Below are positions 10,355 through 14,791 of a stretch of DNA of 64,000 nucleotides, in pieces. The position numbers and the translations under genes were made by a program. The notes under the pieces are model-generated. The model ran no database searches and had not been told where the DNA came from. It saw nothing but the letters and a program-made list of their open reading frames with translations. Position 1 is the stretch's first letter; each line of letters starts with the position of its first letter. This DNA is from a virus, in the IMG/VR virus record IMGVR_UViG_3300011115_000874, positions 96,799-160,798 of that record. One strand, 5' to 3'.

Positions 10355-10849
10355 TCACTTGTCTAGAAACTGTTTAAGATTAGGTCTAAAATAGTTTATT
10401 GATTTCATTACCTTACGATCTCGAGAGCGATATACTACATAGTAATCACCTTGTTTTTCATAATGGCAACGTTCACCTTGTTCTTGTTCTCTAAGACGAA
10501 CAGTGAAATTAGCTTCCTCTTCTGTCTTACAAGCTTTACTCATGTTTGAAGCTTGAACCTCAGCATACGCGGGTAAGATTTTATCTTTTAGACCATGAAG
10601 CATAGCTCCATTACCTAATGAAACATAAGTAATATCACAAAGTGCATCTAACACTTCTACAACATTTCCTGTTTCACAAGCGTGTTTATATTCCTCTAAT
10701 TCCTCTAGAATAAAATCATAAACAAACATCCATTCTTTTTTATCTGGGATAGTAGGTTCATAGTTATTTGGTTTACCCATTGTAGCGTTAAATTCCTCTA
10801 CCTCGCTAACAAATGGAACATAATTTTCTTTAGATTGAGACATGGCCAT
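10355..10849 (-). CDS. MazG/HisE-like nucleotide pyrophosphohydrolase
   Basis: A 164-residue protein with the all-alpha NTP pyrophosphatase signature: FILEELEEYKHACETGN (EExxE-like metal-binding helix, residues about 46-62), then EVLDALCDITYVSLG, where E..D of the second helix completes the metal site. The family hydrolyses nucleoside triphosphates to monophosphates; phage members may trim dNTP or alarmone pools. The C-terminal part (about residues 110-164) is extra and unassigned. The start overlaps the end of folE by 20 bases, so it belongs to the nucleotide/7-deazaguanine operon. ATG at 10849 or 10843 is possible. Confidence 0.75.
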   Translation of the reverse strand: MAMSQSKENYVPFVSEVEEFNATMGKPNNYEPTIPDKKEWMFVYDFILEELEEYKHACETGNVVEVLDALCDITYVSLGNGAMLHGLKDKILPAYAEVQASNMSKACKTEEEANFTVRLREQEQGERCHYEKQGDYYVVYRSRDRKVMKSINYFRPNLKQFLDK

Positions 10850-11525
10850 TATTTATTTTAAGTGAATCAAAAAATTCTTTACGTGCTAAATTATCGTTTT
10901 CCATAAACACACCTGATGCTTTAGTAGTAACCATTGCAGCACCTTGATGTTTAATACCTCTACAACTAACACAATTGTGAGTTGCAACTACAGTAACAAT
11001 AACACCATGATTACCTTCACAAACTTTATTTACTGCTTGATGAATTGCTGCTGTTAATTGTTCTTGGATAGCACCTCTACGACCAAAGTGTTCTACAATA
11101 CGATTTAATTTAGATAAACCAATTACTCGACCTTCAGCACCTGCAATGTAACCAATATGTACTACACCTCTAATTGTTTGGTGATGGTGTGAACACATTG
11201 AAGTTAATTGAATATTACGTTCAATAATTACCCCATCATAACCATCCGATGGGAATGAAGTAATATCAGTAAATCCATTATAGCGACCAGCCCATAGATC
11301 ATTAACATATGCTTTAGCTACACGACGAGGTGTATCAGCAGAGTTAGGATCGTTTTTCCAATCACATTTTAATGCTGTTAAGAAGTTACCAAAATGTTCA
11401 GTTGCTTCTTCAATCATTTGTTGCTTTTCTTCATCCGTTAATGGGCGATCTAAAGCTGATCCATTTGCTAGACCTGTATTCACACACTCAATGTCGTTGT
11501 GAAATTTTCTTCTATTATTTTCCAT
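10830..11525 (-). CDS. folE: GTP cyclohydrolase I (FolE)
   Basis: A 231-residue enzyme converting GTP to dihydroneopterin triphosphate, the first step towards 7-deazaguanines (and folate). The zinc and catalytic motif MCSHHHQTIRG is at about residue 110, RVIGLSKLNRIVEHFGRR follows, and the second motif is HNCVSCRGIKHQGA, with the third zinc cysteine near 188. All catalytic elements are present. With queD, queE, queC and a dpdA-like gene just upstream, its product most likely feeds DNA modification. It has its own start-proximal element TATATTAGGTTATATG, the same as gene 45. Confidence 0.96.
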   Translation of the reverse strand: MENNRRKFHNDIECVNTGLANGSALDRPLTDEEKQQMIEEATEHFGNFLTALKCDWKNDPNSADTPRRVAKAYVNDLWAGRYNGFTDITSFPSDGYDGVIIERNIQLTSMCSHHHQTIRGVVHIGYIAGAEGRVIGLSKLNRIVEHFGRRGAIQEQLTAAIHQAVNKVCEGNHGVIVTVVATHNCVSCRGIKHQGAAMVTTKASGVFMENDNLARKEFFDSLKINNGHVSI

Positions 11526-11549: not shown

Positions 11550-12059
11550 CTAGACTGCCAAAATATATGGCAAACTCCTTTTCTTACCTAAATCATCATC
11601 CATTCCAAACCCAACTACCCATTCATCCTCAAGAACAAAACCGTAAAGTGAACCTGTAGGCATATCTACTTCATTAATATAACGTTTAATTAAAGTGACC
11701 ATTTGAACACTTGCTGGGTCAAATTGGTAGAAATGATTTGCTAATGCATTCATTGTTATTCCTGAGTCGTAAATGTCATCTATAAGATAAACATGCTTAC
11801 CAGTTACATCTACTGATTTGTCTAGTATCATATTTAGGTCACCTCGTTCTTTACCTTCATATGATCTTACTTTTACAAAATCACATTCTGGATCTAGTGA
11901 GGATAATTTTTCAACTAGTTTAGAATAAAAAACAAACCCACCATTTAGTACACATACTAAAACAATAGGAATTTTTTCTGATTTATGGCGATTTAAAATT
12001 TGTGTAGCGATAGAATCAATTCTTGATTCAATAATTCTATTTTCAAATAATACTTTCAT
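11550..12059 (-). CDS. hpt: Hypoxanthine/guanine phosphoribosyltransferase
   Basis: A 169-residue type I phosphoribosyltransferase. The PRPP-binding motif is VYLIDDIYDSGITMN at about residues 90-104, the N-terminal flexible loop region is VLNGGFVFYSKLV, and the base-site region is FVLEDEWVVGFGMDD near the C-terminus, all as in bacterial Hpt. It salvages hypoxanthine or guanine to IMP or GMP. In this cluster it could raise GTP for FolE or recycle host guanine; that link is inferred. The start overlaps the end of the thioredoxin gene by 17 bases. Confidence 0.9.
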   Translation of the reverse strand: MKVLFENRIIESRIDSIATQILNRHKSEKIPIVLVCVLNGGFVFYSKLVEKLSSLDPECDFVKVRSYEGKERGDLNMILDKSVDVTGKHVYLIDDIYDSGITMNALANHFYQFDPASVQMVTLIKRYINEVDMPTGSLYGFVLEDEWVVGFGMDDDLGKKRSLPYILAV

Positions 12060-12318
12060 GTAATTCTTTTATTGAGTGTAATCCTGGGTAATGTTTAATT
12101 TTTCCTTTATTAGATAATATTACGTGTGGGTAATAATCTACTGAAAATGCTGTTTCTAAATCTGTGTCTTCATTAATAAAAATCATTTCGAATCCAAGTT
12201 TATCAGCAATTTCCTGGATCATAGGGCGAGCTACTTTACATCCTCCACACCATTCAGCATAGAAGAATGTGACAGTATTTTTTGTTTTAAGCGCCTCAGT
12301 TAATAATTTTTTATCCAT
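12043..12318 (-). CDS. Thioredoxin-like protein, WCGGC active site
   Basis: A 91-residue thioredoxin fold. FFYAEWCGGCKVARPM carries the redox CGGC pair, and the cis-proline region is VDYYPHVILSNKG. It is short but complete. Located between queE and hpt (TAATG overlap with the queE stop), it is one of two thioredoxins in this block; the likely electron acceptor is ribonucleotide reductase encoded upstream, or an enzyme of the cluster. Confidence 0.88.
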   Translation of the reverse strand: MDKKLLTEALKTKNTVTFFYAEWCGGCKVARPMIQEIADKLGFEMIFINEDTDLETAFSVDYYPHVILSNKGKIKHYPGLHSIKELHESII

Positions 12319-13100
12319 TATACTTCTCGTTTAGTGTCAAATGCAATAATATGTTCTCTACCTGTAAAATTATAACCATTGTCTCTACAGAAATCCATCA
12401 CCATAGGATATACTCGAATTAATTCATCTCTTGTATCACCAGGAGGCATTAACCAAGTTTTACGTTTTGGAATATCCATCTCAACTCTAAATGCTTCAAT
12501 CTCAGTCCATGCTTCAGGCATTTCGATAGGATTGCAAACTGGTTTAAAATGATAGTCATAATGGTATTCTAATGTTTTTCTTATCGTTTCTTTATCCAAA
12601 CGGTGTTTATTATGTTGGTCCACCATTTTTTGGTCTGCGACTTTACCTTGCGGTGTAAGAGTCCCAATTGCAGGAACACTGTTACTGAACTTAGGACTAA
12701 GAGATATAAGGCCAATAGGGAAGTCAGTTTCAACGAAATGACTACCTTCTGTTTCAATTGTAATAAATAAGCCACGTTTTTCTGCTAAATGAGTTAATTC
12801 GTTTACTAGATCAGGATGCATTGTAGGTGAACCACCTGTTAACATCATTTCTCTAATATGAGGGTTATTGTCATAAATAGCTATAATATCATTAAATGTA
12901 TATTTTCCTTTCTCAGGATGAATACTTGTATACCAACTATCACACCACCCACCATCACCAAACCAACATCTATGAGTACATCCTGTAGTTCTAATAACTA
13001 CTGTAGGCATCCCAGCTCTACTACCTTCTGATTGTACAGCTGTATACAGCTCTACAATAGGTAATTTTTTATTATAGTCTTCTATTCTTCCTGGTTTCAT
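12318..13100 (-). CDS. queE: 7-carboxy-7-deazaguanine synthase (QueE), radical SAM
   Basis: A 260-residue radical SAM enzyme making CDG from carboxytetrahydropterin. The start PIVELYTAVQSEGSRAGMP is the QueE signature, and the cluster cysteines lie in GCTHRCWFGDGGWCDSWY at C41, C45 and C53. The spacing is CX3CX7C rather than the usual CX3CX2C, so five residues are inserted. Further motifs are MLTGGSPTMHP (the GGEP-like SAM loop, here GGSP), ITIETEGS, and LSPKFSNS (SPK). The gene overlaps queD by four bases (ATGA) and the thioredoxin by one. Confidence 0.92.
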   Translation of the reverse strand: MKPGRIEDYNKKLPIVELYTAVQSEGSRAGMPTVVIRTTGCTHRCWFGDGGWCDSWYTSIHPEKGKYTFNDIIAIYDNNPHIREMMLTGGSPTMHPDLVNELTHLAEKRGLFITIETEGSHFVETDFPIGLISLSPKFSNSVPAIGTLTPQGKVADQKMVDQHNKHRLDKETIRKTLEYHYDYHFKPVCNPIEMPEAWTEIEAFRVEMDIPKRKTWLMPPGDTRDELIRVYPMVMDFCRDNGYNFTGREHIIAFDTKREV

Positions 13101-13579
13101 ATTTCTTCGTAAATTGAGCTGTTATTATCATTTTCAAAACACTCTACTTTAATACATTTACAACGACCAGCATCTGTTTTAGCTAATACTTCATTAAAGT
13201 GTTCATACACTAAACGAGCATTACTTTCAGCACCCATCTTTTCTAAGAAATGTACTTTACATAGTCCTTCCATTTGCATTTGCTCAAACAAATCACGATA
13301 TGGATCATCTGCTTGAATTAATGTTGTATGATCCCACATATGGTCCATCCAATCCTTTAAGCCATTACCTTTAGGTGGTGTTTTAAATCCACCATAATCA
13401 ACAATCCAATTCATATCATCTAATTGTTCATCAATATTAGGTTCATTAGATGCAAACCATACTTTAAATTTTAAAGCATAACCATGTAATAGCTGGCAGT
13501 GTGAATGTGCTGCTTTATATTGTCTGATTGCTACTGAGTAGTTTTCAAATAATTTAGTTGATATATATCTTGTTGCCAT
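13097..13579 (-). CDS. queD: 6-carboxytetrahydropterin synthase-like (QueD)
   Basis: A 160-residue PTPS-family enzyme converting dihydroneopterin triphosphate to carboxytetrahydropterin. The catalytic cysteine and zinc motif is AAHSHCQLLHGYALKF near residues 24-39; the usual HGH is HGY, so one histidine zinc ligand is replaced by tyrosine. DDMNWIVDYGGF matches the D-M-x-x-D-F element, and GAESNARLVYEHF and KVECFEND fit the C-terminal half. The variant is probably an established subfamily rather than a dead copy, since neighbours are intact, but I cannot test this. It lies two bases after the thioredoxin gene. Confidence 0.88.
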   Translation of the reverse strand: MATRYISTKLFENYSVAIRQYKAAHSHCQLLHGYALKFKVWFASNEPNIDEQLDDMNWIVDYGGFKTPPKGNGLKDWMDHMWDHTTLIQADDPYRDLFEQMQMEGLCKVHFLEKMGAESNARLVYEHFNEVLAKTDAGRCKCIKVECFENDNNSSIYEEI

Positions 13580-13580
13580 A

Positions 13581-13835
13581 TTATTCTCCGTTTAACCAAT
13601 TAACAATTTGTGAGTGTGATTTTACTCCTGTAAAACGTCTTAATTCTTGTCCGTTTTCAGCTAGTACTACTGTAGGTACATTTCGTATATTAGCAACCTC
13701 TAGTATTGCTGGGTCAACATAATCAATATTTTGTTTATGGACTGGGATCTGTCTTGCAATTTCATCCATAATTGGGCCCAATGTCTGACATGGAGTGCAC
13801 CAATTTGCTGTGTAGTAGTATAATTCTTTAGGCAT
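13581..13835 (-). CDS. Thioredoxin, WCTPC active site
   Basis: An 84-residue thioredoxin/glutaredoxin-fold protein: YYTANWCTPCQTLGPIM holds the redox pair, RNVPTVVLAENG the cis-proline, and FTGVKSHSQIVNWL the last helix. Its sequence differs from the WCGGC protein at 12043-12318, so the two are not a recent duplication. It sits immediately before queD. Confidence 0.88.
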   Translation of the reverse strand: MPKELYYYTANWCTPCQTLGPIMDEIARQIPVHKQNIDYVDPAILEVANIRNVPTVVLAENGQELRRFTGVKSHSQIVNWLNGE

Positions 13836-13992
13836 TGTCTTCAGTTTCTGGATTTTGTCGTTGTAATTGTTCTTTTAGCATAGCCATAAATTTACGTTCC
13901 ATGACTAATTTATTTTTAGCAACAGTTTCATTACGCTTTGCAATACGTTTGTTGTGGGCTTTCTTACCACCTCGTTTTTTAGATGTTGGCAT
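13828..13992 (-). CDS. Small basic protein, 54 aa
   Basis: Found by translating the gap between queC and the thioredoxin gene. It starts MPTSKKRGGKKAHNKRIAKR and ends QRQNPETEDNA. The first 30 residues are strongly basic and could bind nucleic acid, and the rest is helical. The start overlaps the queC stop by 14 bases and its stop lies within the thioredoxin start, so the chain is continuous and translation is probably coupled. Similar short K/R-rich phage proteins exist but have no assigned function. Confidence 0.6.
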   Translation of the reverse strand: MPTSKKRGGKKAHNKRIAKRNETVAKNKLVMERKFMAMLKEQLQRQNPETEDNA

Positions 13993-14791
13993 TATTATGA
14001 TTATTTAAAATTGTTTTTACATGTTCTACTACTGTTTCCCAACTTACTGGGCCTGTCTCATCAGCATATTCAACTGGATCTGGTTTGCCTAGTTTCATAA
14101 ATGCTTCAACTCGTTCTACAGATGATGCTGATTTATAATCGCTGTACCAGTTAAGAAAGTAATAAATTGGTTTATATGATGTATTAGTGCGCTTATACAC
14201 TTCATTAAAGTTTAAACCAAGTTTATTTACACATTTATCTCCATCTTCTAAAATACCAAACTTATCAGTATTAAGATAAGGAGTATAATGATATACTTTT
14301 TCAGCACCCCAGTTACCTGCTTTAAATGCTTCAAAATCAGCATCTCTAAATTCTTGACGACAGTCAGGATAAATAGCATGATCACCAGCATGAATACCCA
14401 TTGCGATAGCACATTCAGTATCTTTTTGTTCAGCAATTGATAATGCGACTGCTTGAATAATAGAACTAAATATTTTATTACGATTTGGAACTACTGTTGC
14501 TTTCATATTTTCTTCAGCATAATGTCCTTCAGGTACTTCTTCACCTCCAGTTACTAAAGCTGAGTTTAGTAGTTGTGATAATCCATCTAATTTAATTACT
14601 TGATGTTTTACATTTTGTCCTTTTTGATTTATGTATGATACTAAATCTTTAGCACGCTCTAATTCTACATTATGTTTTTGTTCATAATCGAATGATAGTG
14701 CTGTAACTTCATAGCCATTGGCAAGTAGATGAAGCAATAGTGTGGAGCTATCCATTCCTCCACTTAGTGATAACACTGCTTGTTTCTTCAT
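13979..14791 (-). CDS. queC: QueC-like 7-deazaguanine nitrile/amide synthase, zinc site lost
   Basis: A 270-residue ATP pyrophosphatase of the QueC family, which converts CDG to preQ0 through the amide ADG. The PP-loop is LSLSGGMDSSTLLLHLL (residues 8-24), VVPNRNKIFSS matches VPGRN, and GIHAGDHAIYPDCRQEF matches the G-x-x-x-D-x-x-x-YPDCR block. At the C-terminus, where QueC has TCY...CGxCxxC, this protein reads TSYKP then YSDYKSA: all four zinc cysteines are replaced while spacing is kept. It may make a different product or need no zinc. I start at 14791 (TAAAATG behind the upstream stop); a reading to 14821 overlaps that gene. Confidence 0.88.
   Translation of the reverse strand: MKKQAVLSLSGGMDSSTLLLHLLANGYEVTALSFDYEQKHNVELERAKDLVSYINQKGQNVKHQVIKLDGLSQLLNSALVTGGEEVPEGHYAEENMKATVVPNRNKIFSSIIQAVALSIAEQKDTECAIAMGIHAGDHAIYPDCRQEFRDADFEAFKAGNWGAEKVYHYTPYLNTDKFGILEDGDKCVNKLGLNFNEVYKRTNTSYKPIYYFLNWYSDYKSASSVERVEAFMKLGKPDPVEYADETGPVSWETVVEHVKTILNNHNNANI

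What the first reader, a model, noticed from the sequence alone, without database searches (positions are those of the whole stretch)
13979..14791. QueC homologue with all four zinc cysteines replaced at conserved spacing
Bacterial QueC ends with TCY...CGxCxxC. Here the aligned segment reads TSY...YSDYKSA, so Cys becomes Ser, Tyr, Tyr and Ala while the ATP loop and the YPDCR block remain. Loss with kept spacing suggests selected change, not decay. It might stop at the amide (ADG) or form another C7 group; that is inference.
Basis: partly seen in the sequence, partly recalled or inferred. Interest (0 to 1): 0.75.

Follow-up and report, generated by a model that had tools for sequence, protein, structure and literature searches.

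The report
Zinc-free QueC in a large phage
A phage enzyme that helps replace guanine in the phage's DNA has lost the four zinc-holding cysteines thought to define its family, and the same loss turns up across an order of marine archaea and in a second, unrelated phage lineage, which suggests the enzyme's nitrile-making job does not need zinc.

Summary
The gene is real: a PF06508 (QueC) protein in a folE–HGPRT–queE–queD–queC–dpdA cluster of a complete-looking 160.8-kb phage genome. All four zinc cysteines are gone. Spacing is kept only inside the last three; the preceding loop varies. The change is fixed: 121 of 121 distinct orthologues read S/D/S/S, the catalytic residues are kept, and the protein has only three cysteines.

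The interpretation (stops at the amide, or makes another C7 group) is not supported. Sister sequences in 34 of 34 sampled Poseidoniales loci are also zinc-less, in genomes with an archaeosine TGT, which takes preQ0. A second phage clade (R5C/Iggy/RHEph06) lost the zinc independently (one origin rejected, p-AU 0.007). Members of both phage clades carry intact QueF, which consumes the nitrile. Conversely, Campylobacter phage CP220 (100% dADG) keeps all four cysteines.

Best reading: a zinc-independent QueC that still makes preQ0, feeding a DpdA transglycosylase. This rests on sequence and genome context; no activity was measured, and this phage's final DNA base is unknown.

The parts
13979..14791 (-). 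Zinc-less QueC homologue (270 aa)
   Evidence: PF06508 135.8 bits; TIGR00364 131.0 bits, below its 150.3 cut-off; AlphaFold2 pLDDT 95.3, nearest solved folds QueC 2pg3/3bl5, Cap9, QatC
14111..14179 (-). Former zinc site: S205-Y206 ... D218-x2-S221-x2-S224-V-E-R227 in place of C-Y ... CxxCxxC..R
   Evidence: alignments; 121/121 orthologues; coordinates
14747..14764 (-). ATP pyrophosphatase loop SGGMDS (residues 10-15)
   Evidence: S10 G11 G12 D14 S15 invariant in alignment A3
14360..14371 (-). YPDC substrate block (residues 141-144)
   Evidence: A3: Y141 and D143 invariant, P142 and C144 at 90% or more
15062..15868 (-). DpdA-type DNA guanine transglycosylase (268 aa), one small ORF away from queC
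   Evidence: 36% identical to immuto DpdA, about 34% to CP220 homologue; AF2 pLDDT 95.0; Foldseek hits TGTs and DpdA 7ui4; homologue in 44 of 46 related records
13097..13579 (-). QueD-like (PTPS)
   Evidence: PF01242 41 bits, phrog_2389
12318..13100 (-). QueE-like radical SAM, CDG synthase
   Evidence: PF04055, TIGR03365 52.6 bits, phrog_2076
10830..11525 (-). FolE, GTP cyclohydrolase I
   Evidence: PF01227 143.6 bits
11550..12059 (-). Hypoxanthine-guanine phosphoribosyltransferase-like; likely guanine salvage (inference)
   Evidence: TIGR01203 121.2 bits; in the cluster of 28 of 38 related loci
10355..10849 (-). PRA-PH / MazG-like nucleotide pyrophosphohydrolase
   Evidence: PF01503, phrog_671
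13581..13835 (-). Thioredoxin-like protein within the cluster
   Evidence: PF00085 49.7 bits; 32 of 38 related loci
12043..12318 (-). Second thioredoxin-like protein within the cluster
   Evidence: TIGR01068 42.9 bits; 25 of 38 related loci

Best explanation
This is a zinc-independent variant of QueC that most likely still carries out the whole QueC reaction: CDG + ATP + NH3 to ADG, then ADG + ATP to the nitrile preQ0. The CxxCxxC zinc clamp has been replaced by a fixed set of polar residues (Ser205, Asp218, Ser221, Ser224), presumably holding the same C-terminal hairpin and helix together by hydrogen bonds, while the ATP loop and substrate-binding residues stay. FolE, QueD and QueE make CDG, QueC converts it, and the neighbouring DpdA exchanges it for guanine in finished DNA; HGPRT probably recycles the released guanine. 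Shown: sequence, fold prediction, conservation, phylogeny, gene context. Inferred: catalytic product, structural role of the substitutions, identity of the final DNA base (dPreQ0 more likely than dADG here), HGPRT role.
For: Every residue that E. coli mutagenesis showed to be essential (Y35, R99, Y131, Y189; PMC13329287) is present: Y36, R104, Y141, Y206. S/D/S/S in 121/121 orthologues, serine kept across codon families. Motif-excluded tree: the window clade is sister to Poseidoniales archaeal QueC (99*), which is also zinc-less in 34/34 sampled loci, is the only strong QueC found in two of the three MAGs checked (the third has two copies), sits with folE, queE and queD and accompanies archaeosine TGT (TIGR00432 449.6 bits against a 350 cut-off). 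Second, independent zinc loss in the R5C/Iggy clade (two changes, one-clade tree rejected, p-AU 0.007). QueF with catalytic residues intact in 11 records of that clade and in 7 of 46 records (about three lineages) of the window's clade. Model pLDDT 95.3 with the former zinc region at 96-98.
Against: No activity has been measured for any zinc-less QueC here. PMC13329287 treats zinc as required for QueC function. Score is below the TIGR00364 equivalog cut-off. Hosts could supply preQ0 from their own QueC, weakening the QueF and Iggy arguments (though not the Poseidoniales one). The window phage itself has no QueF in a genome closed by a 127-bp terminal repeat, so its own need for the nitrile is not shown. 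Residue 37 of this copy is Glu where 120 of 121 have Gly. One of three Poseidoniales MAGs gave no TGT match.
Confidence: 0.72

Rival explanations
1. The zinc-less enzyme catalyses only the first half-reaction and releases ADG, which DpdA puts into DNA.
For: CP220, with a homologous DpdA, has 100% dADG (PMC8306585); the window genome has no QueF, so it has no demonstrated need for the nitrile.
Against: CP220 QueC keeps all four cysteines, so dADG does not need zinc loss. The same zinc-less motif is found with intact QueF and in archaea that need preQ0. The known catalytic positions are the same in QueF-bearing and QueF-free members.
Confidence: 0.15
2. The protein binds a metal by other ligands (for example Asp218 with His or Ser), so it is not zinc-free but zinc-remodelled.
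For: Asp218 is invariant in the clade; C187 (65/67) and C188 (60/67) are highly conserved, although Val replaces the second here.
Against: The window protein has three cysteines, one of them in the substrate motif; some Poseidoniales homologues have one or two cysteines in the whole protein. Ser is a poor zinc ligand (general knowledge). The three zinc-less groups use different residues at the four sites (SDSS; SSSD or SSTD; A/S, T/V/L, D/N, T/S/N), which fits packing better than a defined metal site.
Confidence: 0.12
3. The gene is an inactive remnant; the host's QueC supplies preQ0.
For: Bacteroidota commonly encode a zinc-type QueC (several, motif), so a host copy is likely.
Against: Open frame, 105 positions conserved in at least 98% of 121 orthologues, catalytic residues intact, gene context kept.
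Confidence: 0.04
4. The QueC scaffold has been repurposed, as in Cap9 or QatC, to attach CDG to a protein.
For: Cap9 and QatC are among the top structural matches (Z 19.6 and 18.6, close to QueC 18.5).
Against: Full QueC catalytic signature kept, neighbours are the complete CDG pathway and DpdA, and no CBASS or Qat partner appears among ten cluster proteins scanned with PADLOC. By the cited papers Cap9 and QatC keep a zinc site.
Confidence: 0.03

Closest known systems
Canonical QueC (PF06508 cluster 1; E. coli QueC, B. subtilis 3bl5, Erwinia 2pg3)
   Same: Fold, ATP loop, YxQxHxxE, VPxRN, YPDC, essential Tyr after the first zinc site, queD/queE/folE neighbours
   Different: All four zinc cysteines replaced (S/D/S/S), longer loop in the former zinc site, longer C-terminus
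Flavobacterium phage vB_FspM_immuto_2-6A QueC (NC_055915, gp28)
   Same: 63% identity, identical S/D/S/S motif, same pathway with DpdA, phosphoribosyltransferase and pyrophosphohydrolase
   Different: immuto also encodes QueF and a formyltransferase, which the window phage lacks, and has a family A polymerase there instead of family B
Poseidoniales (marine group II archaea) QueC
   Same: Sister group on the tree (99*), zinc-less, in a folE-queE-queC-queD cluster
   Different: S/S/[S/T]/D with canonical spacing; many appear fused to MsrB; chromosomal, presumably for tRNA archaeosine
R5C / RHEph06 / Iggy phage QueC clade
   Same: All four zinc cysteines replaced by polar or small residues; phage DNA-modification clusters; some with QueF
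   Different: Independent loss on the tree; exact spacing kept; different substituents (T-[AS]-Y ... G.DHA[TS])
Campylobacter phage CP220 QueC
   Same: Phage with homologous DpdA and the same pathway
   Different: Keeps all four cysteines; its DNA is 100% dADG (PMC8306585)
Cap9 and QatC
   Same: Same fold (Z 19.6 and 18.6)
   Different: Protein-modifying defence enzymes, different neighbours, zinc site present

Membership tests
[quoted passage not shown]
   135.8 bits, cut-off 22
[quoted passage not shown]
   131.0 bits against 150.3; immuto 122.1 and Poseidoniales 136 also below
[quoted passage not shown]
   residues 10-15
[quoted passage not shown]
   Y36/Q38/H40/E43, V101-N105, Y141-C144, Y206
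[quoted passage not shown]
   S205, D218, S221, S224
[quoted passage not shown]
   2pg3 and 3bl5 first in Foldseek; Z 18.0-18.5
[quoted passage not shown]
[quoted passage not shown]
   needs an enzyme assay or complementation
DpdA DNA guanine transglycosylase (window 15062-15868) | TGT fold | tested here: met
   pLDDT 95.0; TGTs and DpdA 7ui4
DpdA DNA guanine transglycosylase (window 15062-15868) | Sequence homology to phage DpdA in a 7-deazaguanine cluster | tested here: met
   36% to immuto DpdA, about 34% to CP220 homologue
DpdA DNA guanine transglycosylase (window 15062-15868) | Assignment to the DpdA3 subfamily (complete G replacement) | not tested
   subfamily name recalled from Cui et al. 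2023, which was not held in the library
Cap9 / QatC defence enzymes | CD-NTase or Qat partner genes beside the QueC-like gene | tested here: not met
   ten cluster proteins scanned with PADLOC, no such partner; neighbours are the CDG pathway and DpdA

The most novel reading that the evidence does not exclude
QueC does not need zinc to make a nitrile: a zinc-free branch, in which the four cysteines are replaced by a Ser/Asp cluster, serves tRNA archaeosine in the order Poseidoniales and DNA modification in large immuto-type phages, and a second phage lineage reached the same state independently. The zinc site would then be a replaceable structural clamp rather than part of the chemistry.
Probability: 0.68. 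Interest if true: 0.6.

Novelty: new variant of a known kind. Interest (0 to 1): 0.5.

Why it matters
Zinc is treated as a hallmark of QueC and as required for its function (PMC13329287). Natural zinc-free QueCs, found in two separate phage lineages and across an archaeal order, give ready-made material to test what the zinc does, and a warning that annotation rules built on the cysteine motif, or on its loss, may misjudge which 7-deazaguanine a phage puts in its DNA.

Tried and rejected
Cysteines moved elsewhere: rejected as a four-cysteine site (three Cys in all). Zinc loss as the cause of dADG: rejected as a general rule by CP220 and by QueF co-occurrence. Zinc loss as one event: rejected (p-AU 0.007). 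PF14489 hits of about 16-33 bits and 17-23 bits were not counted as QueF by themselves (probably FolE, a related fold; FolE itself scores on QueF-II); the 26-bit hits in G037/G038/G041/G044 were counted after reading their residues (ESKS, Cys, FHE). The key papers on new phage 7-deazaguanines (Cui 2023) and on phage Iggy (Olsen 2023) are not held in the library, so their content is used only as cited by other papers or marked as memory. No coordinates of the predicted models could be read, so distances between residues were not measured.

Full report
What was checked. The window is part (96799-160798) of a 160,798-bp virus record whose ends share a 127-bp direct repeat, so the genome is probably complete. 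On the minus strand lies a cluster: nucleotide pyrophosphohydrolase, FolE, an HGPRT-like protein, a thioredoxin, QueE, QueD, a second thioredoxin, QueC, a small ORF and a DpdA-type transglycosylase. The DpdA-type protein is homologous to the annotated DpdA of Flavobacterium phage immuto and to a CP220 protein, and its predicted structure (pLDDT 95.0) matches tRNA-guanine transglycosylases and the DpdA structure 7ui4.

The observation. The QueC homologue is real, and all four zinc cysteines are missing. Aligned on the conserved V/L-E/L-R that follows the motif, the replacements are Ser205, Asp218, Ser221 and Ser224. The last three keep the CxxCxxC spacing; the stretch between the first and second site does not, being 6-30 residues long in the clade. 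The other motifs expected of QueC are present, including all four residues that were essential in E. coli (Y35, R99, Y131, Y189 in PMC13329287; here Y36, R104, Y141, Y206).

It is fixed by selection. In 121 distinct orthologues from IMG/VR and immuto, all 121 read S/D/S/S. The first serine is encoded by TCN in 94 and AGY in 27, two codon families not linked by a single synonymous step. The predicted structure is confident throughout (mean pLDDT 95.3), the former zinc region included, and its best solved matches are QueC, Cap9 and QatC.

Where else it happens. A motif-excluded tree puts the window's clade beside QueC from Poseidoniales archaea. Those are chromosomal genes, in a folE-queE-queC-queD cluster next to genes that read as cellular (an ABC permease, MsrB, a SpoU-type methylase and, in L169, a ribosomal L31e-like protein; these neighbour names are my reading of the sequences). 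All 34 fetched Poseidoniales-order QueCs are zinc-less with S/S/[S/T]/D at canonical spacing. Two of three genomes checked have a single strong QueC; the third has two copies. Two of three gave a TGT match, and the one scanned is archaeosine TGT, 449.6 bits against a cut-off of 350. In a sample of 145 genomes of that order, 140 have a PF06508 match, most of them strong. Of 80 cellular hits nearest to the window's QueC, 75 keep the zinc motif; the five without it are three Poseidoniales-type archaea, one contig of the phage's own type in a MAG and one truncated gene. A second phage group (Dinoroseobacter phage R5C, Rhizobium phage RHEph06, Pseudomonas phage Iggy and some 35 IMG/VR loci) also lacks all four cysteines, with exact spacing, while its close relatives L134 and L147 keep them. 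The tree needs two changes of state, and one common origin is rejected (p-AU 0.007).

What it makes. Three lines argue that zinc-less QueC still makes the nitrile. First, QueF reduces preQ0, and QueF with its catalytic residues intact is present in immuto and in relatives of the window phage (7 of 46 records; residues), and in 11 records of the R5C group, R5C itself included. Second, Poseidoniales need preQ0 for archaeosine and have no zinc-type QueC that the search found. Third, Iggy's lineage is reported to carry dPreQ0 (PMC11008142). In the other direction, CP220 replaces all its dG by dADG (PMC8306585) with a QueC that keeps the four cysteines. Zinc loss and the amide product are therefore uncoupled both ways. 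Each line has a gap: hosts may supply preQ0 in the phage cases, and no enzyme has been assayed.

What this phage puts in its DNA is not settled. It has no QueF and no formyltransferase, so dPreQ0 is the simplest product of a working QueC plus DpdA; dADG, as in CP220, remains possible for reasons unrelated to zinc. HGPRT is in the cluster of 28 of 38 relatives and may recycle guanine released by DpdA; that is inference.

Verdict. A new variant of a known kind: a zinc-free QueC lineage shared by phages and marine archaea, with a second independent case. Filed as a PF06508 member that probably works like QueC; not filed as canonical QueC, because the zinc motif and the TIGR00364 cut-off were tested and not met.

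Noticed in passing
L331-L360 and others (Poseidoniales QueC loci): Many Poseidoniales QueC proteins run on into what looks like a C-terminal MsrB (methionine sulfoxide reductase) domain, giving 360-400-aa frames (identified by reading the sequence).
   Followed up: partly
window 14681-14683 (residue 37): This copy of QueC has Glu where 120 of 121 orthologues have Gly (YGQ to YEQ), and Val at 188 where 114 of 121 have Cys.
   Followed up: no
G000:C1 about 82142-95092, just before the window: A block with GDP-mannose 4,6-dehydratase, a HAD-nucleotidyltransferase fusion and several glycosyltransferases, one fucosyltransferase-like; possibly virion or DNA glycosylation.
   Followed up: no
window 11550-12059: An HGPRT-like gene is conserved in this DNA-modification cluster (28 of 38 loci); it may recycle guanine released by DpdA.
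   Followed up: partly
window 12043-12318 and 13581-13835: Two thioredoxin-like genes are interleaved with the que genes in many relatives (25 and 32 of 38 loci); reason unknown.
   Followed up: no
L097:6040-8016 (immuto) and records G021, G031, G037, G038, G041, G044: QueF and a PurN-like formyltransferase co-occur in exactly the same seven of 46 records, suggesting a formylated preQ1-type base in those phages.
   Followed up: partly
records G008, G011, G012, G014, G023, G033, G036: Several DpdA homologues were matched with one stop codon (TGA or TAA) counted in the match; not examined, may only be the gene's own end.
   Followed up: no
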